Source: Paramecium tetraurelia | Lineage: Eukaryota; Ciliophora; Oligohymenophorea; Peniculida; Parameciidae | Length of the DNA stretch: 64,000 nucleotides | Assembly (NCBI RefSeq): GCF_000165425.1 | Contig: NW_001799048.1 | Location: 5,727 to 69,726 of the forward strand | Direction of reading: 5' to 3' | In this document: one piece after another, positions 15,551 to 64,000 of the stretch | How positions within the stretch are numbered: the stretch's first letter is position 1 | Layout: each line of letters opens with the position of its first letter | Position numbers and translations under genes: made by a program | The notes under the pieces: model-generated | Databases searched by the model: none | Told to the model about the DNA's origin: nothing | What the model saw: the letters and a program-made list of their open reading frames with translations, nothing else

Positions 15551-16999
15551 TCAATCCACATATTATCTGATTTAAATAGAACCTGATCTATCATCCCAAG
15601 TGATTAAATATTCACCATCATCTGTCATTCTCCCAAATATAACTTTAGTTTAGAAATCTATTGATTATATAGTAGTGAACTCATCATTTTGATCCTTCTT
15701 AATTAGATTAACACAACATCCATTTTTATTTAAAACTACTTACTTAGATTAGACATACTGTTAAGGAAAGAACCAAAAACAACCTCTATTCTTTTTCCTT
15801 TCGCTTCCTACTCCAACTAAGATCTCTTTTGTCTTCACAAACTATTTATCTATGTTATCTAACTGATATATATGCAATTATTCCCTCTTCTCTGGTTAAA
15901 AAGCTAATATTTCGTCATTAATAAAACATAGTCTTCTGCCCCATTATTTTATCCTGAGTGTTTAATATACGATCCACATTTTTTATTCTTAATCATACTA
16001 ATGGATCAAAATTTAACTGTCTTTTGAACAAGAAACTAGTTGATTTTCAGATTCATTTAAGCTTATGCAACTTACAAAACTAGAATGTCCTCCTATTGTT
16101 TAAGCACATTCCCATTAATCTTTATCCTTTGCCCAAAATTTAATCAACATATCATCACTGCTTGATATTAAAAGATCTTCGTTTTTATTCATCAATAAGC
16201 AATTAATTCCTCCTTAATGTCCTTCTAATCTTTGTTTAATGTCCCATTTTGAATCACCATTTAAATAGCATATAGATATAGTCTTGTCACAACTGCCTGA
16301 TAAAAATTCTTTTGATTGTTTCATGAAATATTGACAATAGATGCTCTTCTTGTGGCAATTCAACTATTATATCATCTTTAATTATCCCTTGCTAAATTCA
16401 AAGACTTAAATTTTGCTTGACTCATAACCTCCTACCATCATAGAACCATCTTAATTGAAAGCGAAAGAATTTATTTATTCATCCTGAATTGAATCAATCA
16501 AATCATACTTTAAACTCTTCACTTCCTATTTTACTTTTTTACCAGGACGATCAAATTATTGTTGTGAGAATTCATTAAGACCAGTATAGATTGTCTCTAT
16601 CATATTTTCAGCACTCTTTGAAATCGTTGATATTAGAGATTGCTTCTCTTTTCGAAACCTAATCTTTGAACAAAGTAAGTCGTTCAATTGAATTAAATTC
16701 AATCCATTCAACTCCTCTTCACTTATCTAACAACCAAATTTTAATTCTTCCTTTAAAGTAAAAAATAGTTGATAAATGTGGTCAATCATTTTCTCGAGAT
16801 CAAAAATTAAATCTTCATCGCTTTTATTTATTTATTACCTTCCAAAATCTTTTATCTTCTAAACATCTTTTATATGAGTATTGTGTTTTTCATTCTGCAA
16901 ACACTTGAAACAAAATACTCTAAAGTCTTTGCATTATTCATTGGTGCAAAGGAATTCCACATCTGTCTCATGATCAGGTATATTGCAATTCTAATTCAT
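15551..16999 (-). CDS. B-box-like zinc, coiled-coil and WD40-repeat protein
   Basis: A clean 482-residue frame and a close relative of the gene ending at 11,756. The N-terminal zinc-type Cys/His pattern (CNIPDHETDVEFLC, then VFCFKC and a later HNTH) covers about residues 3-45. A long acidic/lysine-rich helical region follows. The C-terminal propeller has blades including EFLSGSCDKTISICYLNGD, LEGHQGGINCLLMNKNEDLL, SSDDMLIKFW, and IGGHSSFVSCISL, closing with MTDDGEYLITWD. It is probably a scaffold protein of unknown partner. The ATG at 16,999 precedes the first zinc-ligand cysteine by only two residues. No frame break and no intron are needed. Confidence 0.85.
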
Positions 17000-39700: not shown

Positions 39701-42700
39701 GAAATTCATCATTGATAACAAAGTTCCACTTAGTAATAATGCTGATCCAGTGAAATTATTGACAGATGAAAGTACTATTGCAAAATGGAATCAATAATTA
39801 TTGCCAAGTGATGCTGTCAGTACTGAAAATGGTACCATTTTAACTAACTCTGAAAGATATCCATTGATCATAGATCCTTAATTATAAGGAATTAAATGGA
39901 TTAAAGAAAAGGAATCTTCAAACAATATGAAGATCTTACGTATTGGATAAAAAAATACAAATAGATAAATTGAATTCTCTATCTAAGCTGGTAATCCATG
40001 TTTAATTGAAAATATGGATGAAAGAATAGATGCAGTTTTAATGCCTGTTATTGCAAGACAATTTATCATCAAGAGTTCAGGATAAAAGAAGATTAAATTC
40101 GCTGGTTAAGAATTGGATGTTCATCCTAAATTCTAATTGTTCTTACACACACAATTGAGTAATCCACACTATCCCCCTGAAATCTAAGCAGAAGCTACTC
40201 TTATCAATTTCACTGGTCACTGAAGATGGTTTAAGTGATTAATTATTAGCCTTGGTTGTTGGTAGAGAAAGACCAGATTTGGCTTAGAAGAAGGTAGAAT
40301 TGATTCTAACAATAAAATTCATTCAAAATTAAATTAAAAGAATTGGAAGATGAATTATTATATAAATTAGCTAATGCTGAAGGTGATATTTTGGAAGATA
40401 TTGCTTTGATTGAAAATTTAGAATATTCAAAGAAGATCTCTACAGAAATTGCTGAAAAAGTAGAAATTGCTAAGGCCACTGAAGCTAAAATCAATGAAAC
40501 ATCAGAATAATACAGAAATGCAGCTGCAAGGGGCGCCTTAATTTATTTCTTATTGACAGATCTATCTAAGATCCACTCTTTCTATAAATATTCATTGGAA
40601 TCCTATTTGGTTGTAGTTCATAGAGCTATTGATTTAATTTCTGAACATAAATATGTACAAACAGGTGTCATGTTAGATGAGAAAGCAGCAGCTTAAATTG
40701 ATCTTGGAAAGAAGAAGGAAGGGGAAGATGAAGAAGCAGCTGAAGGAGAAGAAGGAGAATAATAAGAAGAATAACAAGAGGAATAATAATAAGAATAACA
40801 ATAAGAAGAATAATAATAAGGTGAATAATAAGAAGGAGAATAAGGAGAAGGTTAATAAGGAGAAGGAGAAGAAGGAGGAGAAGCTAAGGAAGGTGAAGAA
40901 GGAGAACAAAAGAAAGAAGAATAAGCTGAAGAATAGAAGAGAGCTGCTGATGACGATCAACTCACTCCATAATCATTGAGAAAGAGAGTTAATTAATTGA
41001 TTGAAAGTATTACTTATACATCTTTCTAATATGCCAGAAGAGGATTGTTCGAAAGACACAAGTTGATTGTATCAACTATGCTTACTTTGAGAATCAATTT
41101 GAAAGCAGGAAAATTACCAAAAGAATAAGTTGACCATTTGATTATTGGTAAAATTGAATTAAATCCTCCTCCTATGCCTGAATCATTGAAATCATTCTTG
41201 AATGATACTATTTGGGCATGTTGCAAAGCTTTGGAATCAATCCCTGAATTTAATGGTCTTGGATAAAGTTTAGAAGTTGACAATCTCCAATGGAAGAAAT
41301 GGTATAATGAAGAAAAGGCTGAAATCAGTGATCTACCAAAGGCATTCAGTCATCTTAAGAAATTCCATAGATTACTATTACTAAGAACAATGAGACCTGA
41401 TAGATTGACATCAGCTATGGCTAATTATGTTGCTGAAGAAATGGGAGATAAGTATGTTGAATAACCTCCATTCTCTATCTTTGAAACCTTTAGTGAAATG
41501 GCTCCAACCACACCTATTTTCTTCGTCTTATTCCCAGGAGTTGATCCTACTCCTGAAGTCGAAAGAGTGGCTGCCTAATATGATATCACATCATTTAATG
41601 GCAAATTCATCAACATCTCTATGGGTCAAGGTCAAGAAGAAATTGCTAGAAAAGCATTATTGGATTGTGCTGTTTAAGGACATTGGATTATGTTACAAAA
41701 TGTACATTTAATGTAAAATTGGTTGACAGGTCTTAATGGTTTGGAAGGATATCTTGAAACAGTTTATGCCAAACATCATCCAAACTTTAGGGTGTTCATT
41801 TCATCAGAACCTCCTCCTCTGCCTGAAATGAAGATTATTCCAGAATCTATTCTATAAGCATCTGTTAAGGTCGCTAATGAAGCACCTTAAGATTTAAAGG
41901 CTAATCTCAGAAGAGCATATGCTCACTTTGATTAAGAGTTCTTGAATAAATGTTAAAAGAAACCAATCAGAATTCAAGGCATGTTTGTTTGCTTTGTGCC
42001 ATTTCCATTCCTTAGTCTTGGGTAGAAAGAAGTTTGGTGCTTAGGGATGGTCTAGAATTTACAACTTCAATGATGGTGATCTAACCATATGTGCTAATGT
42101 CTTGTATAATTATTTGTCCAAATATGATGTTGTCCCTTGGGATGATTTGAAATATATTTTTGGTGAAATTATGTATGGTGGACACATTACAGACGATTGG
42201 GATAGAAGAACTAATGCCACATATTTGAGAGTCTTAATTAAACCAGAATTATTACAACCAAATTTCAGTTTGGGTCCAGGATTTAAATCACCAGATCCTT
42301 CAAGATTCGAATATGAATAATATAAGGGATACATTGAAAAGAAATTACCAATTGAATCTCCATAAATGTTTGGTATGCATCCAAATGCCGAAATTGGTTA
42401 CTTGACATAATAATGTGAAACCTTATTCAGTACCATTTTGGATGTTCAAGGAGGATCTAGCAGTGGTGGTGGAGGTAAAAAAGATGATGGAGTCATGACT
42501 TAATTGACATTATTAAAATCTACAACTCCTGCTGATACTAATTTGATGGATGTCACAGCTAAGGCATCAGAAAAGACACCAGATCAAATTGTCTGTTTAT
42601 AAGAATGTGAAAGAATGAACATCTTATTAGGTGAAATCAGAAGATCACTTGAGGATCTTAGACTTGGTATGACAGGTGCTTTGAATATCACAGATTAAAT

Positions 42701-43347
42701 GGAAGCCTTATCTCTATCATTATAATTCAATAAAGTCCCTGCCAGTTGGGAGAAGTTTGCCTATTTCTCAAGAAAGGGTTTGGCTGCCTGGTTCAATGAT
42801 CTAATTGAAAGAACAAACTAATTAGCAGTATGGACACAAGAGATGGTCACCCCAATTTCATTATGTATTAGTTATTTGTTCAATCCCATGTCATTTTTGA
42901 CTGCCATTATGTAGAAGACTGCCAGAGAACAAGGATTACCTTTAGATGATGTAAGATATTATTATTTATATTATTTAGATGGTCTTGTAAACAAATGTTA
43001 CAGCAATCAAAGGACATGAAGAAGTTACTGTTTCAGCTGAGACTGGTGCTTATATTCATGGTTTGTATTTGGAAGGAGCTGCATGGGAATTGGGTGGTTA
43101 AGGATAAGAAGGATATTTGATCGAATAGAAATAGAAGGAATTACATCCAAAATTACCAGTTGTTAATGTGATTGCTGTGACTGCCGAGAAAAAGAAGAAG
43201 ATTGGATAATATTAATGTCCAGTTTACGTAACATCAATGAGAGGACCTACATTTGTATTTACAGCAAATCTTAATATGGAAAATGAGGATTCAGACCCCT
43301 CTAAATGGATTCTCAGTGGTACTTGTCTACTGATGAGTGATGATTGA
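30708..43347 (+). CDS. axonemal dynein heavy chain with N-terminal Kelch propeller and IPT domain
   Basis: About 4,183 residues. Kelch repeats fill about residues 10-370 ([36 protein letters not shown], and several FGG strands). An IPT/Ig-like domain comes at about 375-460 ([14 protein letters not shown]), then a charged linker. The motor has four P-loops: AAA1 [11 protein letters not shown] near nt 35,031 with CFDEFNR; AAA2 [10 protein letters not shown] near 35,876; AAA3 GQSGCGKTQ near 36,852; AAA4 GVGGSGKQS near 37,905. The coiled stalk lies about 38,560-39,560, followed by AAA5/6 and the C-terminal domain. Kelch-type heavy chains belong to ciliary outer arms. Introns: 30,711-30,739, 30,912-30,936, 42,951-42,978. 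Eight single-base frame breaks (near 33,910, 34,208, 38,767, 38,826, 39,135, 40,218, 40,306 and 41,969) leave 4,184 whole codons including the stop. An intron-less start at 30,659 is possible. Confidence 0.9.
40716..40950 (+). repeat. Glu/Gln/Gly low-complexity insertion in the dynein motor
   Basis: About 80 codons made almost only of GAA, GGA, TAA and CAA/TAG in the dynein frame, giving an acidic, glutamine-rich tract (for example EEQQQEQQQEEQQQGEQQ). It lies between the AAA5 region and the conserved [17 protein letters not shown] segment. At DNA level it is a degenerate purine-rich GAA/TAA trinucleotide array, likely to change length by slippage. Confidence 0.85.
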
Positions 43348-44483
43348 GGAATATTTGAAATTTATTATATATATTATATATATTCATATTTTAAACATAA
43401 ATATCTTTATTCAACTAATACAATTGTATTACTTACTAATTATATAATTCGCCCAATGTCTATAATCATTCAATTATCATATAAGAAGTTTATTTTTGTA
43501 TTTAATAAAAAATAGGTTTCTTGTTTTTGAATGACATAAAATGCATCTAATCATATCATTCATATTAATTATAAATTAGTTGATTGTATGTATAGAGTTG
43601 CATAATAATAATGTGATATAAATTCTTTTGATAAGATTGTATTCAAGTAGAGCATATAATTATAACATAATTAATATTGTTTTTATTAGAATGTTTAAAT
43701 TATAAGATTATATATATATATATAAATTTTGGTTTCACCACTCATAAAGTATTGCTATAAAATCAGAAACGAATTAGAAAAACTTAGGATAGTAATACTA
43801 TGTTCATAATTCGATATAAAAAGGACATAAATAGAATTTGGCAGATGTAAAACAGCAGTATCATAATTTGCTATAATATCTGAAAAATAAGATCTTGATT
43901 TAAATAGCTATTGTTGATTGATGGAAGGAATAATTAGCGGAATGATCTAATTTTTAATTATTAGAAATCTGAAATTAGAAACCTAATATAGATTAAAATA
44001 TTAATGTAAATCCATATAAAATAGAAATATAACAACTTAATGAAATTGTAATCAAAGTGCTGCAAAAAGGATTGGATTAATTGTTGGTTAAATTGATTAT
44101 TTTAATTTGTAATATAAATTAAATCTCAAAATTGTGTATATGATCTTAACTTTATCAAATAATTATATACTTGTTAAACATTATTTTTGCAAATTAGAGA
44201 AAATAACTAATATAATGCTATAGATGGAACTTAGGAAAATAATATCTTTTATGTTAAATTAAATGAATTTAAAAATTTAAGAATTTGTATGTGTTTAAAT
44301 AATGGATAGGAATGGAAACTAAAATTTTCTAAAGTAAGAGTTAAAATCGCATCTTTGTAGACATCATCTCTAAATTCAAAAGAAAAACTCATATGATAGA
44401 AGGAGAATAAAATTTTTGAATCAGAAAAAAGATAATATAACCTAAATTTGGATACATAAAAATAATTAATTAGTATTTTGAAC
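43348..44483. other. unassigned spacer with AT microsatellite
   Basis: About 1.1 kb between the dynein stop and the start of the giant cysteine-rich gene. It includes a (TA)n run at about 43,708-43,724. A plus-strand patch near 43,990-44,120 (NVNPYKIEIQQLNEIVIKVL) looks protein-like, but no start or full frame could be built. The promoter of the cysteine-rich gene should be near the end. Confidence 0.4.
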
Positions 44484-47400
44484 ATGTTCAAACTCATTTG
44501 CTTGTTTGTTTTTACATTAGCAGGATGTAATTGCAAATGCAATTAAAATGAATATGATCCAGCTATCTGTATTTTATAGATAACTGATTCAAAATGTATT
44601 TAATAAAAGTTTATTGAATAGGCTTGTATGATGAATTTCTGAATCAGTGCATAGAAACTAGTAATTAAAATTTAGGTTGTTCTCATTATTTGAATCGTAA
44701 TGCTTGTATAAATTAATTAACGATTAGTGGAAATGTTGAGAAGAGATGTAAATAATAATTTATATATAGGCATATTTTAAAATAGATGTATAGATGTTAA
44801 CATATACCATCTGAAAAATTTAGGTTGCAGCGATTCATTTTCAAAATATGCTTGCATTAATGTAGTTAATAAAGATTGTTTTTGGAATGGTTCTTAATGT
44901 GAAGATTCTTAAAAGATTATATTTTCAGATAATTCGAAAGAAGAAATATATCCATACTCTGTTACTCCATAACTATGTGCTAAATATCATAAATATCCTT
45001 GTAAATGACATTAATAATAAAGGTATCAATACAGGACCACAAGGAGATTATAAATGTGTTATAATTAATTAGATATAATTTAAAGAATTAAAATGTTCGA
45101 CCTTGGGTTTAAATGAAATAGGATGTGTTTCAATTTTGACACGGAATGAAATGTGTAATTTTATATATCATATTAGGCCTCTTTGAAAATAATTAATGTA
45201 AAACCATAAATCCTTCACAGATGATAGAATGCTCTTAAAAAATAAACAAATTAGCTTGTTTATCTATTACAACACCTAATTTATTATGTCAATGGTAACA
45301 AAATGAATGCCGTGTTTATAAATTTGATCAATAAGTTACATGTCTAGATATTGTTGATGTTAACATAAATGTATGTGCTAATTAAGAAGGTTTATGTATG
45401 TTTGATTAATTAAATTACAAATGTACATAGTTAAATTAAAAATAATTGGAATATTTAAATTGCGATACTCCTGGAATAACAAAATTTGCTTGTTTATCCA
45501 TCTAAAATTAATATTGTACTTTCAATTAAGGGTTTTGTCAAACATTATCTGAAAATGATTTAAGTAATTATTAATGTTAAATGCAATTAAATTAAGCAGC
45601 TTGTATTAATATTAAGACAAAAGGTTAATTATGTTTATGGAATGGATAAGGTTGTTAAAATGTAGAAATTACTTAAGATTAAGATTGCAATAATTTTGAT
45701 CGATTTTTAGTTAATGGAAATGTTTGTTAAGCAATCAAAAAGCCATATGCAATGTGTAAATATGATGAAATAACTAAAATTTGTGTTAAAAGTTCAACAA
45801 ATGATTATTGTACTACTCCATATTTAAATTTATATGGATGTGTCAGTATTTCAAGAGAGAATTAGACTTGTAAATGGATAGATTCAAGCTGTTGAAGATA
45901 TTGTAATAATACCATTTGAAACACTTTGTAGTAGTTTTGGAATATGCAAATTATTAAGCATGTCAACAAGTATTTGAAAATAATTAAATGGGTTGTTATC
46001 ATGATTAGAAAAAATCCTAATGTGTATCTTTATTAATAAGCACTGATAACGAAACTAATATAAATCTACAGGAGATACAAAAGGCTAATTAATATTTATC
46101 AACTGTTTCATGTTTTGATAAATCTTTAGGATTGAATAGAATCATATGTGGATCTATCACTACGAAAAATGTATTTTGCAGATGGCAATAGAATAGTTGT
46201 AAATTTATGAAAAAAGAAGCTATTGCTAATATTCCTTGTACAGATCTAAAATATGCTAATCCATCAACGTGTGCTTAAGTAAAATACAACAATGAATTTT
46301 GCAGATATTTTAAAGAAGAAAAAGGATGTACAAATCAATTAAAAGGTGAAATGAATTGTATTGATCTTGGGCTTAATACAATTAGTTGTAAATAGGCTAA
46401 AGAGAATTGTTACTTTGACAACGATAGATGTTAAAGTATTGGTGAAATTTCAACTTAAATTACTCCTGAGGTTTAAATCATTTTAGAAAAACTAACTTGC
46501 TAATCTAATTTTCCAACTATAATGATTTGCTTAGAAATATAAACTAAAGGTTAATTATGCTAATGGTCAATTATGTATTAATAGTGTAGAGACATCCTAG
46601 TACTTCCAAATAAAAAATGTTCAGATTTCTCCTCATTTCAAGTAAATGTTAATGTTTGTGCATCTATTACAATGGAAAATCCAAATAACATTATTTTTGG
46701 TATGGAATAATCCTTTGAGGGATAAAATCCTGGTTATTGTGAATATGACAGAACAAAAAAGATTTGTAAGGTAAAAACCAAAGATTGTACTTCTGAATGT
46801 TGTACAGAAAATGAAGAAATAGGAATAAATGTACATTCATGCAGTAGATTCTCAAGTAAAAATCCAGGAGTTTATTGTTATTTTAAAGACTTCAGATGTT
46901 AGCAACTCACAAACTAAAATGTAGATATCTCAAATCCTAATAATGTAAAGAGTTACTATAATGAAAAAAAATTTAATTGTGCTTAAATGAATAAGAATTC
47001 TTGTCATATGATTGATTGGGTCAACTTCTTAAACTTGCTATTATAATGGATTTGCTTGTGTAAATTTGAATTTAAAAAAGTAAGTAGACCTGATAGAATT
47101 TACAAAACCCTCTTCAATTCTCAATATTTATGCCTGTTTAGCAATTGAGGCAGTGAATAGCATCAATTTAAGTTAAAAATATTTTGAGTATAATTAAGAA
47201 GGTAAAAACTGTAAACTACTTCTACAACCATATCCATTATATTAAACTTGTGAAAGTGTAACTGGAAATTCTAACATTTGTTTAGGACTTACTAGTAATC
47301 TTTATTGTAAATGGAACAAAGAATTGTTAAAATGTGTTACAATTACAGAAGATTAATAATAAGAAATCCTCACATGCAATGAATATCAAAATATCAAATC

Positions 47401-50400
47401 ATGCTTAGAAAATTAATACTCAGCGTGCCAATTCTCTCTTGCCTAAGATAAATGTATTAATGCACCTTTAGATCAGGATTGCTCATATTTCAATACTACA
47501 GGTAAAGTAAGTAGGAAAACTTGTTCATTAATAACGAAAAGTGGCTAAATTTGTGAATTTTAAGATAATTATTGTGTTGTTTCTAACAAATCTATTGAAG
47601 GATGTAATTTAGATGGAATTAATAAAAGAGGTTGTTTTAAGAATACTAAAGGAAATTGCAGATGGGATGATGTCTCAGGTTAATGCTATGAAAATAAAAC
47701 AGTATTATAAGAATTGGAATGTAATAATAATTTAAATTAAATCTTATGTATGAAAGTAACTAAGTAACCATGCATGTGGAATGATGATCAATATTAATGT
47801 GTTTATTTTAATCAAATGACTAAAGATCAATATTTAGAATAAAATCCTAAGAATTAATATAATCAATGGGCTTGTACCCTAATAGTTGGTGCTGGATACA
47901 CATTTGATGCAGATAATCATAAATGCAAATTACTAGATAATACTTAAAATTTTGGATGTTCTGATATTTAGATGAATAATTATGCATGTTAATTTTTAAC
48001 AAAAGGTTCAAATTGTTATTTTGATTAAAATGAAAAAACCCTCCAAAATGTAAAATTTTCAATATGGGAATCAAACAATTTGCTCATATAAATATGCCAT
48101 AAATATTGAAGTCTGTATGAATAATACCAAAATCATGTAAATTCTCTCTTCAGAATTTATCTTGTATAACATTATAAGTAAAAGCAGATACGAGTTGCTT
48201 AGATCTTTAGGACTTAATAAACAGAGGAGATTATGTTAATAAACTAGGATGCTCCTCTATATCAGAATCTTTAGAAGGGAATGATGGAGAATATTAATGC
48301 TATTAAAATAAAGAATTTGTCTAATAATGCAATTATTAGAGATTTTGTTATTGGGATAATTACACCTGCAAAGTGAGTAAGTAATAAATTCATACATTTG
48401 ATTATGAAAACTACGTCATCAGTTAATAGTCATATTGGGTATATCAACATAATAACTGCACTGATACTGCTGAATGTAATTAAATATGTAATAAATTCAG
48501 AATTTAAAAGTGATGGCTTAACTTATCCTGGCAAGAGTGATTAATTAAAATGCGGATTAGGAAGATGTGATTATACAAATGAACCCTGTTCTTTAAGTGA
48601 TGATTGTGGATAGATTTTAATTGAAAATCTTAAGATTAATGATGATGGCACAATATAACCACCTATTGTATAGAATTAAACGTGCTAAAAATATTGTTAG
48701 TAACAATTAGAAATCTAACCCTGTAAGGATACAGACCCCCCACCTCAAGAAGTCTTAAACCCTGAAATACTTTAATAATAAAAATGTTTTGGAAGTTGTA
48801 ATTACACAAAAGACCCTTGCTAAATGTTTAGCGATTGTCCAAAAGCTTAATAAACTTTAGTAAATCAAGTATAACTTGAGAACAATACTATCAATATAAC
48901 TACTATTATACAAATAACTTAACTCTGTGATTCATATAAATGTTCAGATAGCCATAAATCTTGTAATAAGACAGCTGATTGTTTTCCTTTTGTAGCTAAA
49001 TCTTGGGAACTTTAGGATGCAATATGTAAAAAATAGGATATCTATACTAAATCAGAAATCTGCAAAGGGTTTTATTATCTGCAGTTAAAATGCCGAAACA
49101 TTTTTTCTAAAGCTCTTTGTATTCAAATGACAAATGAAAACTGTTACTTTGATTTAAATTAAGGTGGTTGTATTTAGCTTGAAGGGAATGAACATAAAGT
49201 TCCAAATTGTGATAGCATAAAAAATACTCGCAAACCAACTAAATAATGTGATAACTTTACCAATATTTGTAGATTTAGTGGGTAATAATAAAATGAATAT
49301 CAGAATACATGCCAAGCAGTATCTTCATAATTAGTGTAATGTAAAGATAGTAGTGAATAAAGTGTTGCAGATAATTCATGTCCGGCTAATACACATCATT
49401 ATATAACTTGTGTTAGAGATTAAAATTTTCAAAGCTCGTTGTCATGTATAAGGGTTCTTAATCCATCAATATTTAATTGCGCTGCAGTAGCTGATTATTG
49501 TCGATATTCAAATGGAGTTTGTATATCTGATCAGAATACCTATCCATGTAAATGTGATAAAAGCTTCAGTAAATCTTGGTGTGAATTTTGTAAATGCAAC
49601 TTCGATTTGCTTGGATACTGTTAACTTGAGAGTAAACCTATTCAAAAATTACCTGACAATTCTAATCAATATTATTTATGTTATGAGGTGAATTTGTTAC
49701 CAATTGATGCTGATGGTAAAAAAAAAGTTTGTGGAATGGTCGATTAAGCATGTCGATACACTTTTATATGTGAAGATGCAACTCATTATAGTTGTGATTA
49801 CCTTCTAAATTTGGTTGTATCTAAAAGAGCTTGCATCAGGTGTAATTCTTTAAGTGTTTATTATGATGAACAAAAATAATTTTGTAAAATATAGGAAGAT
49901 GATATAAAATAGTGCAACTCATTAAACAAATAGGCATGTTTATAAATGACAAAAGGGATAAAATGTAAATGGGAAGATTATGAATGTAAATAAATAGATA
50001 GAATAACCGGATCTGATAGTAGAGATTGTTCAATTTATAATTAAGATGCTTGTATATAATTCTAGTAAGATTGTTGGTTTGATTAGAATATTGGTTATTG
50101 TACATAGTTTGATCCAACTTAAGGTTCTTGTAATTTATTATTAAATGAAGATCTTTGCTTATTTTCATTAAAGGAATCTTGTTTATGGGATTCAATTAAT
50201 TTAAAGTGTATGAAGAATGATAATCAAATTACATAATGTTCAGATTTAAATAAATTTGGATGTTTAAATTAATCAATCATGTCATGTGTATGGTCAGATC
50301 TTTATAAATGTTAATGGGCTATATTAAATGATAAAGTAATATCATGTAATTCTGTATTATCAAATACTTAATAATCATATATTACACATTTTAGTTAAAA

Positions 50401-53400
50401 CATTTGTTCTTAATTAAAGATTCAATCAAGTTGTTTCTTAGATAATTATTATTAATGTAGATAAACTATTATTACAGATATAATTAAATGTAATACTTAA
50501 GGATTAAATAAATTTGGTTGTATTAATAGATCAATAGGATAATGTTAATTTAAAGATGAACAACATTAATGTATAGAAAATACAAATGATTAAATTGGAT
50601 GTCTTGATTCATTAAATAAATAGGCTTGTATTTCTTAAAAATAAACATGTAAATTTGAGAATAATATCTGTTCTCTTCATTAAGTAAATACAATTAATGA
50701 TATCATTAATTCTACTTTATTATTCGTTTATTCTAAAAGTGTTTGTTATGCTATAGATTAACAAATAACAGATTGTTTGATATATAGTGAAATATAAAAT
50801 AGATGTATTAATGTATCTAATAGATAACCTTTTATTGATAATTGTTATAAATTTACAATGAATAAGTATGCTTGTTTATAAAAAACATTATAAACATGTG
50901 AATATAATTAAAATGAAAATAGTTGCATTTAAACATCATAATAAACTTTGAAAACTATTAATAATTGTTTTCCTGAAAAATATTTAAATTGGATTTCTTG
51001 TATATCTTTACCTTCTAATTGTAAATTCAATGGAATAAAATGTTAATCTATTGATTTAAAAGTTGATACTTGTGAATCTTTATCTAAATCTATAATTTAT
51101 AGTTAAAGCTTCAGTTTGTGCAACTACAAATGATCGAAATTGTAAATTAAATATTACTTAAAATACTTGTGAAATACTATTAGAAACTGATAATTTCTAA
51201 TGTTCAAGTCCAGGTTTAAATAGAAGAAGTTGTTTATTCTAAACAAAAGGCTATCTTTGTAGATTTCAAGATGATTAATGCATTTTTGATTTTGGATAAG
51301 CTTAATGTGAAGATATGATTAATGAAGATAAATGTTATTCAATCAAAACCAAAGGTTAATACTGTACATTTGATTCATCCAAAGGTTGTTATTCTATTGA
51401 TAATTCTTAAGGAGAATTACTTAAAATGTATTCATTCATTTAAAACTAATCCTATTACCTGTTCAAAAAGTACAGACATACCATGTTTTTACGATTAATA
51501 TAACAATATATGCATACCTTTTCTTGATAATAAAGAATATATATCAGTCTCTCAATTTAAACTGGAATAACAAAATATCATTTAATTCATTAATGTGTCA
51601 AAGATATTCTTAAGGGACTATTAAGGTATTTTGGAAAATCTAAGACAATTATGAAGAATGCTTTGAAGTCTAAGAAGCTGAACTGAGAATTTTGAAGTGT
51701 AGCGATAAACTAAATGAAAACGGATGTGTTAATATTCAAACATCATTCTAATTGTGCTAATATGAAAATTATATTTGCAAGGCAATTAATCTTGATAGCC
51801 CAAACATAAATACTAATTGTTCTTATTATCAAAAAATTAATAGTAGTGGCTATCTGTTAAATAACAACCGATAATCCTTTGTGAATATGAATATAAGTAA
51901 TAAAAGATGCTAAGAACTTACTTAAGCCTCTGAAGTGGATTGCGATTAGAACCAAACTTAAAACAAGGGGTACAATGGGTTAGCATGCAATAAAAATAAT
52001 AATTGCATCTTTTATGATGGCACTTGCTATAACAAAATTGGAGATTCAATAGCATTTTGCTCAGACGTAGATTCTACATAAATATAACTTTGTAAAGAAA
52101 TTATTACTTAAGGTTGTACTGTAACTAAAGACAGGTGCATATCATTATTACCAAACAATTATATGTCCATCAAGTGTAATGAAGCAGTTAATATAAAAGG
52201 ATGTATATAAATTTAAACTCCAGGATAAACTTGTTTTTTTGATTAATATTTAGAGATATGCAAATTCTAAAATTTATATATTGACTTTAAATCGAAATGT
52301 TTAGAGCTGAACAACATAAATTCTTTTAAATTCTGTGAATAAACTACAGATTAACCATGCAAATATAATTTAATGATGAATAAATGTGAGATTGCAGCTG
52401 GAAATAATTATGATTGTATTCGTGGATTGAATAAAATGGCATGTTATAATTTAACTGATAAATCATAATAATGCAAATATCTAAATTATTGTTATGGACC
52501 AAATGATAAAATACTGGAATGTAATCCTAATAATTATTATGATTGCTGCCGTGAAGCATTAACCAAAGAGTCATGCTTATTTCAAAAAAGATTTGAATGT
52601 TAATGGCAAAATGGATGTTAGGCTTATCAATAAAAAATTTAAAATGAATGCAATTAAATTAAAGATGCTTCAGTAACTGTTTGCACATCTATAAAGGACT
52701 CATTTTGTATATTTGATGCTGAAAACTTCAATTGTAAATAAATTACTCCTGAAAGTTGTGATGAAATCTAAACTTCTGATCAATGCAATAAAATAACAGA
52801 ATATCCTTGTATCTGGGATGAGCTTAATGAAATTTGCATCTATAAAGATAAAGATATTTTAGATTAATGCACCAACATTAGTGATAATAATGGCAATTTG
52901 AAAGCATGTACTATGATAGAAAGAAGTGGTTAAAAATGTATATTTATAGATAATTAATGTAAGACATTTTACTAAAAAGATGGGATTAATAACTGTATTA
53001 ATAATATTAATATTACATCTTGTTTATAATAAAATGTTAGTCCGTGTGAATGGGTGATAGAAGAAGTAAAAGTAAAGAAAACAAAGGATATTACAAAAAT
53101 GGAAACCATAAAAATAGGAGAGTGCTAATAATTTACTGATTTTGATAATAGAGACTGTAATTTACTTCTAAGTTAAAAATCATGTATATCAGTTAGAAAA
53201 TTAGGGTAATTTTGCAGATGGAAAAATAATTAATGCCAAAACTTTTCTTTATCTGATTATTAGATTAATAAATATAGGCAACCTGAATTAGCTTAAATAG
53301 TTAATCCAAATGTTTGTGGATTATATTAAGATTAAAGATTAATTTAATATTCTTAAGAACTTGCATCATGCATTGAAGTAAAAGATTCAAGCAAATTATC

Positions 53401-55248
53401 TTGTTAATAATCAAAATATGGTTTAAATTCAGTATCTTGTTTCAAAATTTAATCTGAATCGTGTAAGTGGAATCCTATCCACAAAACATGTGAATAAGTC
53501 ACAATAAATAATACAAATCTTACAATATCTTGTGATTTGCCTGGCCTCAATTCAAAAGCATGTACATTAATTGAAATAAATGATAGTTGCGGTTTTATTG
53601 GCAACGGTTGTAGTAAAATAGATTTAAATGTTAATTGCAAACATTAAGGATTAAACAAATTTGCATGTTTAACAATTTTGAACTATCCTTGTGCTTGGAT
53701 TAAGAATGAAGAGGATGAAAACTATCATTGTGATGACTATTAACCATATGATACTTGCAACAATATTAATCTGTAAGTTAACTCTATGGTATGCTCCTCT
53801 GGTTTAAATTGATGCTTGTTATTATAATAAATAAACTCAAAGTTGTGAATCTCCTAAAGAAACTTTGGATGGTTGTGATATTGAGGGTTTAAATTACATA
53901 GCATGTTCTGAAATAAAAGGATGTTATTTTGAAAATCATAAATGCTAAACACTTAATGAAGAAACATATAGTTGCCTTTAATATCCTAAAGCTCATTAAG
54001 ATATTTGTAAAAATGCTTATGATTTATGTAAATATAGTCCTTTAAATTATGGTTGCGTACCTGCTTAATCCAATGAAATATGCAAAAGAGAAGGTTTAAG
54101 TTAATCCGGTTGTGTCAAATCATAAAATTAGTGCTTTTGGAATAAAAATAATTGTGAATGCTTGAGCATTTAAAATGTTTTTCCATTTTGTGATTAAATA
54201 TTTGACTCTCAAAAATGTAATAAATTTAAACATTGCTAATATGACTATATGAAAACAAATAATAATGAAGTTAATTAATAAATTGAAAATTAAAATTTAG
54301 GGACTTGTCGACGAAAGCTTTGCTCAGAACTTACAAAAGGGTAATGTTAAAAGTTTTAAATATTGGATGATTATTGCTATTTAAACAATTAAAATAAATG
54401 TTAGAAGGCAAATTCATGCGAGGAAGTTAAAAATGCAAGCGAAATGTGCTCAAATTTAGTCATTAATGGTATTCCTTGTACAGAACATTCAGATAATATT
54501 ACTTGTAAGAAATTAGAGTGTTCAAAATTGGATTATAAATAGTGTAAATTATTTTTTCTTTATTGCACTTTTACTGACCTTTGTAAACCCATATTATGTT
54601 AAGAATTGGAATCTGAAGACTCATGTAGATTTCATAATTGCCAATGGAACTACAATCAAAGTAAATGCAGTAATAATTAGCCATGCGAGAGTTATTCTAC
54701 ATCAGATTTGTGCAATTAAAATTCCTATAATAATGTTAAATGCATCTGGAAAATTGATAATGAAGAGAGATTTTGTACTGCTAAAGGATGTAGAGAGTTA
54801 GTTAAATTATAGGAATGTAGAAATACGTTTATACAAAAAAATATATGTGTCCGCCTTCAAGATGACACATGTTTATAATGTGAAGAAATTAAAGATTCAT
54901 GTTTATGCATTGATCAAGAGTATTGCAGTTTCAACTATATTTTGCGATAATGCTAATCTATAAATTGCATTAAGTTAAATAATGAAAAAAAATGTTAACA
55001 ATATCATTTTTGTTAATACAATTCCTCAAATAAGGTAAGAGTAAAATCTAATCTAGACTTGTCACTTTAATTGCGCTAATTATGATAATAACCTTGATTG
55101 TAGTAATGATTCTTCCAACTGTAAGTGGAATAATGAATAAAATAGTTGTACATTAATAAAAGTAGTTATCGATCCGTCTCCACCAGTAAATAATTTTGAT
55201 TGGAAACTTTGTACTTGTGTTTGTATTCTTTTTTGGATACTAATTTGA
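44484..55248 (+). CDS. giant cysteine-rich surface-antigen-like protein
   Basis: About 3,580 residues. A secretion signal is clear (MFKLICLFVFTLAGC). After it come dozens of cysteine-rich units of roughly 60-75 residues, with the rhythm Cys-x2-Leu-Asn-x2-Ala/Gly-Cys-Leu ... Cys-x-Trp/Phe ... Cys (for example CNSLNKQACL, CSDLNKFGC, CSSPGLNRRSCLFQ). The end is hydrophobic (LCTCVCILFWILI), fitting a membrane or lipid anchor. The layout recalls Paramecium surface (immobilisation) antigens and related ciliate cysteine-rich proteins, which coat the cell. A 31-nt intron at 51,072-51,102 is supported by its presence in the second copy. Other frame changes (for example near 44,630 and 45,008) are undecided between short introns and base errors. 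It converges with the next gene, 58 bp apart. Confidence 0.7.
49921..51155 (+). repeat. 1.24-kb inverted repeat, left copy
   Basis: This is almost identical to the reverse complement of 58,713-59,950. I compared the whole tract by eye and found one substitution (near 51,094), a 1-base indel (near 50,247) and a 2-base indel (near 50,539). Outside the limits identity falls at once to that of distant repeat units. The tract encodes about 400 residues of cysteine-rich units in the plus-strand gene. Confidence 0.93.
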
Positions 55249-55306
55249 CCTAACTAAATTAATTATTTAGTTTTTAATATAAATATAAATTATATAATTC
55301 ATATAC

Positions 55307-58300
55307 TCAATATTAAAGAATTTAAATGAGTATTATTATTCTAAAAATTATACTATGGATATCCGAAACTACAATAATTGAGGAAGGTTCCGTATATTTG
55401 TAGAATTTTTTCTCTAATTAAATACATAATTTAGAATTTTTATCCCAAGTACAATATGATTCAAAATGGTTACATTGCTAGCGGTTATAATTATTTTCGC
55501 AAAGTGGAATACATATCTACTTTATATGTTGATAAATACCTGGCCCTTCTCATTAAATTAACATCTGTCAGCCGGACAAGTTTCATGATTGAAGCTTCCA
55601 CATTATTTAGACTTACAAAGATTATCAAATTTATCATATTCACAATAATTTTCGTACTACAAACAAATACAAGGATCCATAATCTCTTAACAACTTACAC
55701 AGGTTGAATCTGATAAAGGAACACAGACATCATCACCAATTTAAGCTCCATTACACAAAGAATACTTAATTAATAGATATCTACATCCTATAACTGAACA
55801 AAAATAATCCTCCCCTTCCTCTTCAATTAAAGCACACTATTTACCATTTTGTTAAACTAACATGCAATTTTCTTTGTTTTGAGAAGCACAAAATTGTGAG
55901 TTCATACAACTTTTATTTTATTCAAGCCATTCACATTTCTTGTCAATGCATTTCTATTTTATAGTAAAACGATAACATTCTAATGTCTTACATATTTCCT
56001 CAAAAATGCAATCTTGAGGAAATTATTAACAGGTGTAAGCATCTAGACTCTCGCAATCTGGTGAAGTTATACAATTCTTATTATTTGAATCTCTAAAACA
56101 TTGTTTGTTCTTTAGGGTATATATCAAGCAATTATTTTAAGGATTCACTATATCATCACATGTTTTTGCCAAATTGCATTTATTATCCTAGGTTAAATAA
56201 CATATATCAGTATCTAATTTCTAACCGTCACATTAATCTATTGAATAATAATCGCATGTCCTTCTTAAACATTTTACTAAATTTTAATCGATTATTTCTT
56301 AACTAATATCAACATTATATTAAGGATTAGAAGGTGCAACATAACAATAATTTAAATTTTAACATTTTCTGGAATTTGTGATAAATGAGCAATCTGGATA
56401 TTAAGTTAGTATAGCCTTACATAGACATTGAGATTAATTCCATTGACAATCTAATAAATCATCGCAGCCAACTTAATTAATCCCTTTTGTTGAACATATA
56501 TCCTATAACTCTGATGATATGCAACCATATCCTAAATTATTATATTTACATCTATTCCTTTAAATTTAAGTACAAACCTTATGATTAGAAAATAGAGCAT
56601 CTTCACAATTTAAATTCATCGTTTTTTCATATTTCATACACCTACCTTGTAAATAAACACAATTTTCAATTTTAGAACATCCAATACCATTAATACCTGG
56701 TAGATTACAATTAATTTCTTATTGGGCTTTAAATAAAATGCAATTTCTTATTATAGAATTATAAAAGCAAGGAGCATCTAAAATTTAAGTGCATACAAAT
56801 GCATTAACCTAATGATTATAGCCTAAACAAGCATCAAAATCTTGAATTAATTTACATTAATATTATAAAAGATAATCATCTTAGACCCATCCACAAGGAT
56901 AATTTGTGATTTAAAGGCATGCATGCTCATTTAACCCTGGATAATCACAAGAAATTTTAGTTACATCAACTTGATCACAATCATTTTCTTTTGATCCACA
57001 AGGAAGAGATACTTATATTGATGAACATGATGCAGGGTTAATATTTTTTAAGCTGCAACTACTACTCTATATATTAAATTTAAGACATTTTTTTTTTGTG
57101 TCATCCCATTTACATTGTTGGTCTTTAATATTCAAACAAGCTTGCTTATTCATACCTTTAAAATCACAAGTTAGATTCTTTAGATTTGATGCATTTAAGC
57201 ATTTAAAGTACTTAGTATCACATATTACACTAGAACCATCATTTATTAATCCACATGTATTACAGTTACACTAAGATAAGGATGAGAAAGATAAAATTTA
57301 ATTAGTTTCAACATTTTTACATTAATTGTCTTTCCATTAACAAAATGTAACAGGGGTATTAATATTCAAACAAGCAAGATAACTAAGATTTGAATCACAT
57401 TAATGACTAGATTGTTGATTGAAATCAAGACATAGTTATTTTTAATTTTGATCCCAAATACATTCGTATAATACTTATTATAAGCAAGATAATTTATTCA
57501 CTTTTTATGAACAGCCTACCACTTATTATTACGTATAATCAGTGCATTGATTTTAAAAGATACACATTTATCCTTGTTTTACAACATCTAAGCATGTTCT
57601 TTCGCTACCCCATTAATCTTATATATCTTAACATCCATCATTAGGATTCTTTACTTTTGTTAAGCATTAGGCTTTGATAAAATCCCAATAACAAGGTAAA
57701 TTATTAAATTAAATACATTATTCTTTTGTTTAAACTTATTCACAATGATTTGGTTGAATTTCTACACATCCTAATTTATCCAAATTGAAAATACAAATAA
57801 CATCCTTAATATTATAACATACTTTTCTTGAAACATTATTTAAAGTTAAACATTCTTAATTCGATTCTGAATATTATTTACATTCTTCATTTTACCACTA
57901 ACATAAAAATTTATCCTAAAATAAACAACTTTCAATAGTATTAGCTTAGAAGCAACAATCTTTGATTTTTATAGGGTCACAGTTAAGAATATTGTAATTA
58001 GGTCCGTAACAGTAATTATAGAATTTACATTATAAAGATTATTAAGTATGTGTTAAGCAAGCAATTTAATTCAAACCTCTTATGCATTAAAATTCTATAT
58101 CTCCTTGGGCATTTTCGCATTTATGCTCTAAGGAATTGTGTTTGCAAGGAACAGCAAAGATTTGTTCACAAAATACTTAGCTATTAATTTAAGAGATACT
58201 TTTACAAATACCTGACCGTATTTCTAAATTTATAAGCTCACAAATATTATTTTACTCATTAAATTGACAAAATTGTTTTTTTGTAATGATGTTGATGCAC

Positions 58301-61300
58301 CCAATTTTATTTGAAACTTGATTACATTCTAATTATGAATATTCACTAGGATTTATTGCAACACATTTATTTTACTCTATTTTACATCCTTCTCTTAAAG
58401 GCTTGTTGCATTCATTGACAGGAAATTCACTACAATATTTAATATTCTCAGTTGCCTTTTTTTAATAGCATCCATTTGAAAAAGTACAATCTGAGGATTT
58501 TAAATCACATGCCATTTTACTATATCCAAGCTATTCTGGATTAGCATCAACACATTGAATTTGGTTAATCGATATAACCTTCTCGCATGAATACATTTAA
58601 TTATTAAATTAACAAGCTTCAATTTCATTTACCTAACAAAAAATTCCTGAATTTACTTTCTAAATATTACTGCAATGAAATGATTTAAAATTTTAAGGAT
58701 CTTAAAATTAGCAATATTTAATTTACAATTTCGATCATTTGTAGTTGCACAAACTGAAGCTTTAACTATAAATTTTAGATTTAGATAAAGATTCACAAGT
58801 ATCAACTTTTAAATCAATAGATTAACATTTTATTCCATTGAATTTACAATTAGAAGGTAAAGATATACAAGAAATCCAATTTAAATATTTTTCAGGAAAA
58901 CAATTATTAATAGTTTTCAAAGTTTATTATGATGTTTAAATGCAACTATTTTCATTTTAATTATATTCACATGTTTATAATGTTTTTTATAAACAAGCAT
59001 ACTTATTCATTGTAAATTTATAACAATTATCAATAAAAGGTTATCTATTAGATACATTAATACATCTATTTTATATTTCACTATATATCAAACAATCTGT
59101 TATTTGTTAATCTATAGCATAACAAACACTTTTAGAATAAACGAATAATAAAGTAGAATTAATGATATCATTAATTGTATTTACTTAATGAAGAGAACAG
59201 ATATTATTCTCAAATTTACATGTTTATTTTTAAGAAATACAAGCCTATTTATTTAATGAATCAAGACATCCAATTTAATCATTTGTATTTTCTATACATT
59301 AATGTTGTTCATCTTTAAATTAACATTATCTTCTATTGATCTATTAATACAACCAAATTTATTTAATCCTTAAGTATTACATTTAATTATATCTGTAATA
59401 ATAGTTTATCTACATTAATAATAATTATCTAAGAAACAACTTGATTGAATCTTTAATTAAGAACAAATGTTTTAACTAAAATGTGTAATATATGATTATT
59501 AAGTATTTGATAATACAGAATTACATGATATTACTTTATCATTTAATATAGCCCATTAACATTTATAAAGATCTGACCATACACATGACATGATTGATTA
59601 ATTTAAACATCCAAATTTATTTAAATTCTGAACATTATGTAATTTGATTATCATTCTTCATACACTTTAAATTAATTGAATCCCATAAACAAGATTCCTT
59701 TAATGAAAATAAGCAAAGATCTTCATTTAATAATAAATTACAAGAACCTTAAGTTGGATCAAACTATGTACAATAACCAATATTCTAATCAAACCAACAA
59801 TCTTACTAGAATTATATACAAGCATCTTAATTATAAATTGAACAATCTCTACTATCAGATCCGGTTATTCTATCTATTTATTTACATTCATAATCTTCCC
59901 ATTTACATTTTATCCCTTTTGTCATTTATAAACATGCCTATTTGTTTAATAGGTTGCATTTTGAAACACTTCTCGTCAGAAGATAATAGCAAATATGATT
60001 ATTAATGTCATATTAAGTACTAGCACCCTTACATAGAGTGCAGGCTTTCTTTGTTGTGTAATATCCCTTCAATTGCTCGCATGTATAATGAGTTGCATCT
60101 TCGCATTTATTATTATTAAAACTTTGCATGCCTATTCAACCAAAGTACAAACAATCAGACTTACTCAGAATATTTAATTGATTAACTTCATGACATAAAT
60201 AATATTTGTTTGATGCATCAGGTCTTAGTTATGGAGCAAGTGGATATTATTGGCAATATCCAACAAAATCAAATACACAATTGCATTCTTCACAAAGCGA
60301 TTTACTAAAACTTGAATCACAAATACATTAATTGTATTAATTTTTCTTTATAGTACTAACACAACGATTTAACTCAAAGCGACATGGATCTCTTGCTAAT
60401 GCACAATAAGCAGGAGAAATATCTTAAGTAATAGCATCACAATATATATCTTCAGTCAGAGTCACAGGTTCACATATCTAAATTGGTCTTTATAAAGAGA
60501 AGCATTAACTTTAGGTCGGTAATATTTTCATTTATCCAGCTTTACAAATTACTTTTTAATTAGAACTGCTTAAACAAGAATTTAAGAAACTGTTAGGTTA
60601 GCATTCTGTGCTACTTTTACAAATTTGCTTTTTTGGATCACATTACAAAGCATTTTGAGTAGGTTTACATCTGCTAGAAATTGATGAACAATTAGGTATT
60701 TTATTTTCATTTCCTTTTAATTATTAACATCCTCCTTAATTTAAATCAAAGAAACATTCTTCTAAAACGCCATATAAACAAAGTGATTTTGAGAAAGTAT
60801 TTTTGCATCTTAATTCAATATAACCAAATCCTTTACAAATAGGAACTACTTTATAAATAGTTTTCTCGAAACATTAAGCAAATTTTAGAGTCCAACTTTT
60901 GGAAACATAATCAGGACACTAATCATTACTGCAGGAGACTTGACTGTAAGTACATTCTTTATTCTGACATATATTTTAATAATAGCTGGTTTGAAAGGTA
61001 ATATAATCAGTAACAGAAGTATACCCACATTCAAAACTTTCATAGCATGAGGAATATCCTGAATTATTGCATCTCCCTTGGCAAGATTAATGACCAATTA
61101 GAGCATCACTAATAATTTCTTATGGATTTTAGTCACTTTATTGATTGCAGATCATATCACCGTTTTTTTAACATCGTTTTGAGCATAATTAATTTTACTT
61201 AATACCTAAATACAACGTGCCATCATCATTTATTTTAATTGGATCTTTGTAAATGGTTGGACAATCAGAATCTGTTTAACAAAGTTTATCTTAATAATCA

Positions 61301-64000
61301 CATGTTTTATTTAAGCCACATTGTAAAGGAGCAGAAGTTCCTGGAAATATTATCTTATTTGTTTTGGAATATACTTCTGGGGTTTTTACGAATTAATTGC
61401 AGTAATTTGTACAATTATCTATTTAATACCTGTATTCATAAACTGAACTTTTTTCGGTATTTTCTTTATCAAAAAATAATACATTTAAAATTTTGACTTA
61501 ACACCCATAAATTTGATTATGCCATTCACATTTATTTTCATAATTACACTTTTACTTTTTATCTTCACTCCCAAAACATTTATCTTCAGAATAAGTCTAT
61601 TTTATTGATTCATCAATGGAAGAGCAAGATAATTTATTATAATGATTTCCATTATATAATTAGGCACCTAAAGAAGAGCACGTTTAAGACTGAGGAATAT
61701 CTGCAACTAAACATTATAATTTGGATTTAGAAAAGTAACATTATTTAGAAATATTCATGCAAACTTCAATATTTATAAGATTGGAAGTTGTACATACTGA
61801 TTAATCATCTGTGAAAAATTAACATGGAGGCATTTTAGTAGTATCATATACACAATTATATCCTCTTGTCAAATATAAGCAAGCATATTAATTTATCATC
61901 TAAAAACAGGAGTTTTGATTATTTGAATTTTCAATAAATATACACTTATTTTTCTTATCATCATATGTATATCCAGCTCCTGTTATCTATAGACAAGATA
62001 ATGGATTAAACAAATTATTTTTATTTAAATCTCTGAAATCGCTATAAGGAGTTTAATTAAAGGTAACACATTCATATAATGAATCATCCCACATGCAAGG
62101 TTCCTTAGTTACTTACTTACATAGAACATAATTTAAATTATCATTGCATCCTAATTCAACTATTTATTTTAATGACCCTATTTCATAACATGTTGAGTTT
62201 TCAATACTCCATCTACAATTTCCCTATGTATTTTTATAGCAAGTATATTTATTAGTTCCGATTACATCACATTTATTTGAACTTTTATTTGTCAAAATGC
62301 ATTTATAATTTTACCATTCACATTATTAATTAGGAAGGTCAATTTATGAGCACGACTTTTATGATACATACCCTTTAGAATCAAAATAGTTACATGGAAC
62401 ATAAGTATAAGCAGTTATGCATCTATCTAAATCAAAAGAAAAAAAACAAGAAGAGTAAATATTTTCTTTACATGCTTTAATATTTTAATTCTGATCGCAA
62501 GTAGTTATATCTGCAAATTCATCTAATGAGATTGTGACACATTTTAATAGCTTTTTATCCCATTTACAATAATTATTTTCGGTAAATCTTAAGCATATAT
62601 TAGAATTGCCTTGAACATCCTCACATCGTGCATAATATGGAGGTGAAGTTTAATAATTCCTACTAATACAACGATGATTTTAAGGATCGTATTCAAAATA
62701 TTTTTCAATGTTGAAAATAGTTAAGGATGCTTCAATTGCCAAACAAGCAAAACGATTTAAAATAGAAGGAGCTTCTGTAAAAATTTTATAATTCTTATAG
62801 TTTTCAAAGTTGATGTTAACGCATGAAAATCCATTAAAATAACATCTTTAAGAAGTCGACCATTCAATCATATGACATGAATTTTTACCCATTTATGAAC
62901 ACTTAAATCCATCAACCTCATTAGCATTATAAAATTGTTTAACAGCTTCTTCATTTTTTATATCAACTTAATTTTATGTCAATTCTTTACACCTATAATT
63001 ATCGAAGTAGCAATAACTACTAGAATTCTTGGTTAAAAAACTGCATGAATGTTAATTTATTCCATTAAATCTACCTTCAGTACAACAATTTGTTTCACAA
63101 AGTTCGTTACCATCTAAGAGATCACAAGAAAAATTATTTGAGTTATATTTACAATAGCCAACTTTTTATTTTTCATTACTAGGTATATAATCTGGATTTT
63201 CCATGATTACAGATGCGCATACATTACTATTAACGTTTTTAAATTCTGTGCATTTTTAATTCATATTCACAATGATTTGTCCACATTTATCTAATGTTTC
63301 TTTCCATCCACATAATTATCCTGGTTTTGATATTTATTTACATATCTTTTCAGTAGGAGAACTTTTATCACATTCTATATCGTCCAAACTGTTAATCGAT
63401 ATTTGATTATTATTCGACTCAGACTCTTAAGAAGAATTTTAGGAAGGAATTTAAGATTTGAAGAGCTGGCATTCTATAGTAGCCTGATTAAAGTAACATT
63501 AATCTTCTAATTAAGCACAAGCAAATGCATTCAAACCAGATGTATCACATTTCATTATTTATTTAACAGAATTGACGCATCCCTTAGCAGCATTTTCAAA
63601 TCTACAAGGTTCTGATTTAAATTAAATCATAGCACAACTCTTAGAATTTGAATATATCATTTCTTAACAAGAAACATCTGAAAGCTCTTTAGGATTAAAA
63701 ATCTTAACGCATTCATTTTAATACCACCTACAGGCCGTCTATGGTTTGATTATACTAGCACAAAGTATTCTATTTAATCCTAATAATTTGTTTTCACAAT
63801 CCAATGAAATTAGCAATTAAACTTAAGTTTATAATTAATCTACTTTCTAACATCTTTGATTTGATTTATTATAATAACACCCAGATACTTCGTTTTCTAT
63901 TACTTGAGAACAGGAATTAGGATTTGCATTGCCTAAGCTTTCGCAAGTTGTTTTATATGGCAAAATGACTATATATATGCATCCATTAATTGTCCATTAA
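55307..64000 (-). CDS. giant cysteine-rich surface-antigen-like protein, N-terminus outside the window
   Basis: The last 2,880 or so residues of a paralogue of the plus-strand gene, read from the right edge to TGA at 55,307-55,309. It has the same cysteine-rich unit pattern. Near the end are dense Cys segments (CVSCQEIMDPCIC, CGSFNHETCPADRCQF, CNHFESYCTWDKNSKLC), and the tail is hydrophobic (IIFRIIILIQIL), fitting a membrane anchor. A 20-nt intron at 55,520-55,539 restores the frame just before the last unit. A 31-nt intron at 58,766-58,796 matches that of the plus-strand gene. Relative to the plus-strand copy there is one extra base near 59,625 and two near 59,331, which would disrupt about 290 nt if real. 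It is probably a surface protein; it may be a pseudogene if the frame changes are genuine. Confidence 0.62.
58713..59950 (-). repeat. 1.24-kb inverted repeat, right copy
   Basis: The reverse complement of 49,921-51,155, 3 bp longer owing to a 1-base and a 2-base insertion (near 59,625 and 59,331). It lies inside the minus-strand cysteine-rich gene at roughly the position its partner holds in the plus-strand gene: 3.4 kb from the stop here, 4.1 kb there. Confidence 0.93.

What the first reader, a model, noticed from the sequence alone, without database searches (positions are those of the whole stretch)
49921..59950. Near-identical inverted tracts inside two convergent antigen-like genes: a possible invertible cassette
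Two giant cysteine-rich genes face each other. Each contains the same 1.24-kb coding tract, in opposite orientation and nearly identical, while the flanking coding sequence is much more diverged. Homologous recombination between the tracts would flip the 7.6 kb between them and swap the 3' ends of the two genes in frame, producing two chimeric surface proteins; reversal would restore them. Antigen switching in Paramecium is known as expression control, so a recombinational shuffle would be new. A simpler reading is a recent gene-conversion event. Orientation and identity are seen directly; the inversion is inference.
Basis: partly seen in the sequence, partly recalled or inferred. Interest (0 to 1): 0.8.

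Follow-up and report, generated by a model that had tools for sequence, protein, structure and literature searches.

The report
Gene-conversion patch between facing genes
Two neighbouring giant genes of a Paramecium share a nearly identical 1.24-kb stretch, most likely because one was recently copied over the other, a patching also seen between other neighbours of the same gene family, and nothing found here shows that it works as a DNA switch.

Summary
Window 49921-51155 (+) and 59950-58713 (-) are 99.9% identical inside two convergent, giant cysteine-rich genes that otherwise average 59.5%. (1) The pair is one of two similar convergent pairs; two more tract copies lie outside the window and both pairs have the same orientation. 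(2) At the tract edge the site pattern flips: 280 of 938 ungapped columns separate left from right genes outside, 0 of 793 inside. (3) Same-strand neighbours of this family on contigs C58 and C138 carry similar patches (0.5-1.0 kb, 94-99%) at other gene positions; 0 of 7 pairs from different clusters do. A flip cannot explain those. (4) A dynein gene in the window reads as converted with its duplicate on C157. The family matches no Pfam model, including the Paramecium surface-antigen domain. Both genes look frame-broken, but so does the strongly constrained dynein on the same contig, so many breaks may be consensus errors; I withdrew an earlier pseudogene reading. Rare inversion in macronuclear copies cannot be excluded without reads.

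The parts
44418..55248 (+). left giant cysteine-rich gene (L1); the 5' end is approximate
   Evidence: rough gene parse, open stretches, protein matches to the intact paralogue C58b over nearly its whole length in changing frames
55307..64000 (-). right giant cysteine-rich gene (R1), convergent with L1; runs out of the window to about C95:70985
   Evidence: translation, open stretches, rough parse, protein matches to C58b; the 3' end was read off the translation by hand
49921..51155 (+). near-identical tract, left copy
   Evidence: segment test, repeats, four-copy site patterns
58713..59950 (-). near-identical tract, right copy
   Evidence: segment test, repeats, four-copy site patterns
51156..51491 (+). 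stretch next to the left tract that the right gene of the second pair (R2, contig C156) also shares, but the right gene in the window lacks
   Evidence: C156:6885-8453 matches C95:57217-55648 at 96%; alignment; genome search
58709..58713 (-). edge of a deletion of about 0.64 kb in the right gene relative to R2; it sets the inner edge of the tract
   Evidence: C95:61023-64439 and 64439-71079 match C156:3170-6583 and 7221-13889; junction letters

Best explanation
The tract is a segmental, ectopic gene-conversion patch between linked paralogues. Two old, strongly diverged, convergent giant cysteine-rich genes came to share at least 1.24 kb (probably about 1.57 kb before the right gene lost about 0.64 kb at the inner edge). 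The pair was also duplicated as a block, and conversion went on inside a pair afterwards. The inverted orientation is incidental: same-strand neighbours in other clusters are patched in the same way. Shown: identities, edges, copy number, site patterns, tracts in both orientations. Inferred: that copying rather than another kind of exchange made the tracts, that contigs C95 and C156 are neighbours, the direction of copying, and that it happened in the germline nucleus.
For: Identity 99.9% over 1235 positions in genes of 59.5% mean identity, score 1228 against a permutation maximum of 35. Columns that separate L from R: 280 of 938 ungapped outside, 0 of 793 inside; 5 columns inside group L1 with R1 and L2 with R2, as conversion within a pair after the block duplication would give. 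Tracts between same-strand neighbours on C58 (538, 1025, 560, 568 nt) and C138 (704, 1005 nt) at other gene positions; 0 of 7 pairs from different clusters. Third codon positions differ at 43 of 2027 codons in seven patches (two of them in the recent duplicate pair C58c/d) against 849 of 1650 in the background of C58a/b, so protein constraint is not the cause. Pair 1 against pair 2 is patchy: variance between 100-nt windows 17.0, 22.1, 17.5 and 3.8 times the shuffled value in four stretches. The dynein gene in the window is 98.8% identical to its C157 copy while the upstream flank is 82-85%.
Against: No direct observation of conversion and no outgroup genome, so direction and date are not known. 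Several of the pairs with tracts share genes and are not independent. 6 of 14 diverged same-cluster pairs show no tract at the threshold used. R2 keeps an 87-nt patch with 28 differences inside the tract, which needs either a discontinuous event or a further donor; none was found in the genome. The five L1=R1/L2=R2 columns lie within 50 nt and are probably one event.
Confidence: 0.88

Rival explanations
1. Invertible cassette: recombination between the inverted tracts flips the 7.55 kb between them and swaps the 3' halves of two surface-protein genes, reversibly.
For: Inverted, near-identical, homologous tracts 7551 nt apart are a plausible substrate. Contig C95 ends inside another tract copy, which alternative arrangements could cause, but so could any unresolved repeat.
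Against: Both pairs show the same arrangement. Tracts of the same kind join same-strand neighbours, where nothing can invert. As assembled, a TGA stop lies inside the tract in both copies, so the 3' halves would not be read in either arrangement; this argument is weak if the frame breaks are consensus errors.
Confidence: 0.05
2. Assembly artefact: one tract copy was filled with the sequence of another.
For: The contig breaks inside a tract copy and consensus quality in near-identical sequence appears poor.
Against: The copies keep their own indels and R1 its own adjacent deletion. The copy on an independent contig, R2, carries the same tract with its own differences and a longer shared flank. 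Further tracts occur on C58 and C138.
Confidence: 0.04
3. Strong protein constraint keeps the stretch alike without exchange.
For: The region is aligned across ten family members with many invariant cysteines.
Against: Silent positions are identical too (99.9% over 1235 positions), whereas the eight other paralogues aligned over this region are only 33-40% identical in protein to L1; patches in other pairs lie at other gene positions.
Confidence: 0.01

Closest known systems
Gene conversion between Paramecium whole-genome duplicates (PMC11334263 and PMC3464196, passages seen)
   Same: Duplicated genes share recent identity by copying; the dynein gene in the window looks like such a case.
   Different: Here the exchange is between linked neighbours of one gene family and covers 0.5-1.6 kb pieces inside 10-kb genes.
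Segmental gene conversion of surface-antigen genes, as in Trypanosoma brucei (mentioned in PMC9788069, passage seen)
   Same: Pieces of diverged members of a clustered family of probable surface proteins are copied between members.
   Different: No expression site, no switching and no immune selection are known here; surface location is only inferred.
Paramecium surface antigens (PF01508; PMC9788069, passages and part of the discussion seen)
   Same: Giant, about 10% cysteine, duplicated within chromosomes, hydrophobic C-terminal stretch.
   Different: No PF01508 match; profile comparison with nine PF01508 units of this genome gives only 24% probability.
Invertible DNA cassettes (recalled; no call)
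   Same: Inverted near-identical arms around a segment.
   Different: No second arrangement seen; the arms are ordinary coding sequence, and same-strand neighbours have such tracts too.

Membership tests
Ectopic gene-conversion tract | Abrupt switch of relationship at the tract edge, with diverged flanks | tested here: met
   L/R-separating columns 280 of 938 outside, 0 of 793 inside; permutation test
Ectopic gene-conversion tract | Silent sites homogenised as well | tested here: met
   99.9% over 1235 positions for L1/R1; third positions differ at 43 of 2027 codons in seven patches of other pairs
Ectopic gene-conversion tract | Non-reciprocal copying seen directly or polarised by an outgroup | not testable with these tools
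   no genome of a related species is held
Invertible cassette | Inverted near-identical arms | tested here: met
Invertible cassette | Both orientations exist | not testable with these tools
   no reads; the second pair has the same orientation as the first
Invertible cassette | Dedicated recombinase or recombination sites | not tested
   no systematic search; the 18 window ORFs given to Pfam showed none
Paramecium surface antigen (PF01508) | Match to the PF01508 profile | tested here: not met
   no Pfam family in six pieces of the window pair at E 0.01 or in two halves of an intact paralogue at E 10; among the 150 of 1370 genome candidates scored, none on C95 or C156
Paramecium surface antigen (PF01508) | Expression as a serotype, GPI anchor | not testable with these tools
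   only a hydrophobic C-terminal stretch is seen in translation
Pseudogene pair | Real frame-breaking mutations | tested here: inconclusive
   frame changes and TGA codons are present, but a dynein with 93 silent and 1 non-silent substitutions on the same contig is broken too, and R1/R2 and L1/L2 substitutions still favour silent changes

The most novel reading that the evidence does not exclude
A second family of giant cysteine-rich, probably surface proteins in Paramecium, outside the known antigen family, is kept mosaic by frequent conversion between neighbouring genes, so that recombination and not only expression control diversifies the coat; in the inverted pairs the same exchange also flips the segment between the tracts in a fraction of the many macronuclear copies.
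Probability: 0.12. Interest if true: 0.7.

Novelty: new member of a known kind. Interest (0 to 1): 0.33.

Why it matters
It turns a striking 'switch' into a measurable case of segmental conversion between neighbouring genes in Paramecium. [quoted passage not shown] the clusters on C58, C138 and C95/C156 give ready markers. It also warns that frame breaks in near-identical sequence of this assembly do not prove pseudogenes.

Tried and rejected
Pseudogene reading: L1 and R1, and less so L2 and R2, are frame-broken against an uninterrupted paralogue, and I first took the window pair for pseudogenes. I withdrew this when a dynein heavy chain on the same contig, with 93 silent and 1 non-silent substitutions against its C157 copy, showed 12 single-base indels against that copy, seven to nine of which I assign to the C95 side by hand from the reading frames. 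Of 19 indels of 1-2 nt between the two pairs within the compared gene stretches (I looked at the letters of 16), 14 are extra bases in the window pair, which fits residual long-read consensus errors but is only suggestive. 12 of 14 listed breaks in L1 and R1 lie where another copy is within 3 substitutions per 121 nt, against 97 of 170 sampled windows. Against this reading: eight of 14 family members fetched from other contigs are single open frames, two of them cut by the fetched stretch, but six are in two or three pieces. Real breaks are not excluded, above all in R1 with its deletion.

Intron reading of the breaks: a rough parser offered introns at some of them, but C58b reads straight through.

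Haplotype reading of C156: disfavoured because C95 itself holds the second left gene as a direct repeat 24.7 kb on, and because C156 beyond about 13.9 kb does not follow C95.

No RNA family or tRNA in the window; no PDB chain matched the family profile at E 1. A comparison of two PF01508 array pieces on C93 (89-92% alike) was not informative. My first query for the R2-specific patch used the wrong stretch and was redone. Structure prediction was not used.

Papers: seven searches listed no paper whose title or abstract start deals with segmental conversion in such a Paramecium family. I saw listings; passages of PMC9788069, PMC3464196 and PMC11334263; and part 1 of 2 of the discussion of PMC9788069. 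The library lacks most subscription journals.

Full report
WHAT IS THERE. The window is C95:5727-69726 of a 69.07-Mb, 231-contig genome. Its genes read with TAA and TAG as glutamine, and PF01508 (Paramecium_SA) matches abound elsewhere in the genome (all 150 scored of 1370 candidates pass the cut-off; none of the 150 on C95 or C156). I therefore take it for a Paramecium macronuclear assembly; the species was not determined.

THE TRACT HAS FOUR COPIES, NOT TWO. A genome search with 621 nt of the tract gave four places: the two in the window, one on C156 (98%) and one cut off by the end of C95 (168 nt, 100%). C95:74893-81199 repeats C95:50213-56431 in the same direction at 92-93%, and C156 from its first bases to about 13.9 kb follows C95:58004-71079 in pieces of 88-97.5%. 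The simplest layout is a second convergent pair (L2, R2) 24.7 kb beyond the first (L1, R1), with the assembly broken inside the L2 tract. The missing L2 piece was not found elsewhere. That C95 and C156 are neighbours is an inference.

THE EDGES. On the outer side the copies change from diverged to alike within a few bases. In the 1 kb outside, 280 of 938 ungapped columns separate L from R and 2 separate pair 1 from pair 2; in the 793 ungapped columns of tract present in all four, 0 separate L from R and 5 separate pair 1 from pair 2. The five lie within about 50 nt, probably one event inside a pair after the pairs had separated. R2 alone keeps an 87-nt patch with 28 differences, for which a genome search found nothing closer than the tract copies themselves. 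On the inner side R1 has lost about 0.64 kb relative to R2 at the tract edge, while R2 stays like L1 for about 330 nt further.

SAME-STRAND NEIGHBOURS HAVE SUCH TRACTS TOO. A protein search of the genome gave 28 matches on C95, C156, C138, C58, C177, C157, C223 and C208. Of 14 members fetched from contigs other than C95 and C156, eight are single open frames of 2520-3308 codons (two of them cut by the fetched stretch) and six are in two or three pieces. I compared 24 chosen pairs. Two (L1/L2, R1/R2) are uninformative because the background is too alike; one, C58c/d, is a recent duplicate (81%) with four blocks of 96-99%. Of the other 21, 14 lie within one cluster and 8 of these have tracts: the four L x R pairs, C58a/b (538 nt 96.8%; 1025 nt 98.7%), C58b/c (560 nt 95.4%), C58b/d (568 nt 94.0%) and C138a/b (704 nt 99.1%; 1005 nt 97.7%). 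The seven pairs from different clusters have none. Several pairs share genes and are not independent. The C58 and C138 tracts join same-strand neighbours and lie at gene positions 399-937, 460-1163, 4276-5280, 4810-5378 and 6854-7878 nt; the L/R tract is at 5504-7068. Third codon positions differ at 43 of 2027 codons in seven patches (two of them in C58c/d) and at 849 of 1650 in a background stretch of C58a/b, so protein constraint is not the cause. Pair 1 against pair 2 is patchy as well: the variance between 100-nt windows is 17.0, 22.1, 17.5 and 3.8 times that of shuffled columns in four stretches.

A CONTROL IN THE WINDOW. The dynein heavy-chain gene at 30800-43402 is 98.8% identical over 12.6 kb to a copy on C157. 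The upstream flanks of the two are 82-85% identical, and downstream the similarity stops at about 43.4 kb. This looks like conversion of a whole gene, of the kind described as widespread between Paramecium whole-genome duplicates (PMC11334263, passage seen).

THE FRAME BREAKS. Against the intact paralogue C58b, L1 changes frame seven times, R1 twice, the C95 part of L2 twice and R2 once; R1 also has two in-frame TGA codons in one matched stretch. The TGA at 51131-51133 is inside the tract and present in both copies, so at face value neither arrangement would translate the 3' halves. But the dynein gene, with 93 silent and 1 non-silent substitutions against its copy, shows 12 single-base indels against that copy, seven to nine of which I assign to C95 by hand. 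A gene under such constraint is unlikely to be so broken, so I take these for consensus errors in sequence that is hard to polish. Many breaks in L1 and R1 may have the same cause: 14 of 19 small indels between the pairs are extra bases in the window pair, and 12 of 14 listed breaks lie where another copy is nearly identical, against 97 of 170 sampled windows. Substitutions still favour silent changes: R1/R2 149 silent and 281 not, L1/L2 113 and 256, where 19-20% silent is expected by chance. Whether the genes are intact stays open.

WHAT THE PROTEINS ARE. No Pfam family matches the six pieces of the pair or an intact paralogue up to E 10, and no PDB chain matches the family profile at E 1. 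A profile comparison with nine PF01508 units from C93 gives 24% probability (pairwise E 0.00083) over 45 columns: a hint, not membership. Surface location is inferred from hydrophobic C-terminal stretches in translation.

VERDICT. Segmental ectopic gene conversion between neighbours explains the tract and its relatives in both orientations, and gene conversion is already known in this genus. The switch has no positive support; a low-frequency inversion in macronuclear copies can be tested only with reads.

Noticed in passing
window 30800-43402: Dynein heavy-chain gene 98.8% identical over 12.6 kb to a copy on C157 although the upstream flank is only 82-85% identical: it reads as whole-gene conversion between duplicates. 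It shows 12 single-base indels against that copy, likely consensus errors.
   Followed up: yes
C138:65386-66390 and 75930-76935 (loci L011, L012): A 1-kb conversion patch in which all 23 codon differences counted are non-silent and none silent, unlike the other patches; possible diversifying selection or a chance of a small sample.
   Followed up: no
end of contig C95 and start of C156 (loci L006, L007): The assembly breaks inside a tract copy; about 1.6 kb of the second left gene appears to be missing.
   Followed up: partly
C156:7972-8058 (locus L007): An 87-nt patch with 28 differences inside the R2 tract copy, with no donor found in the genome.
   Followed up: partly
window 9915-16999: Three WD40-repeat genes on the minus strand; one has a 74% identical copy on C223, a contig that also carries members of the cysteine-rich family.
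   Followed up: no
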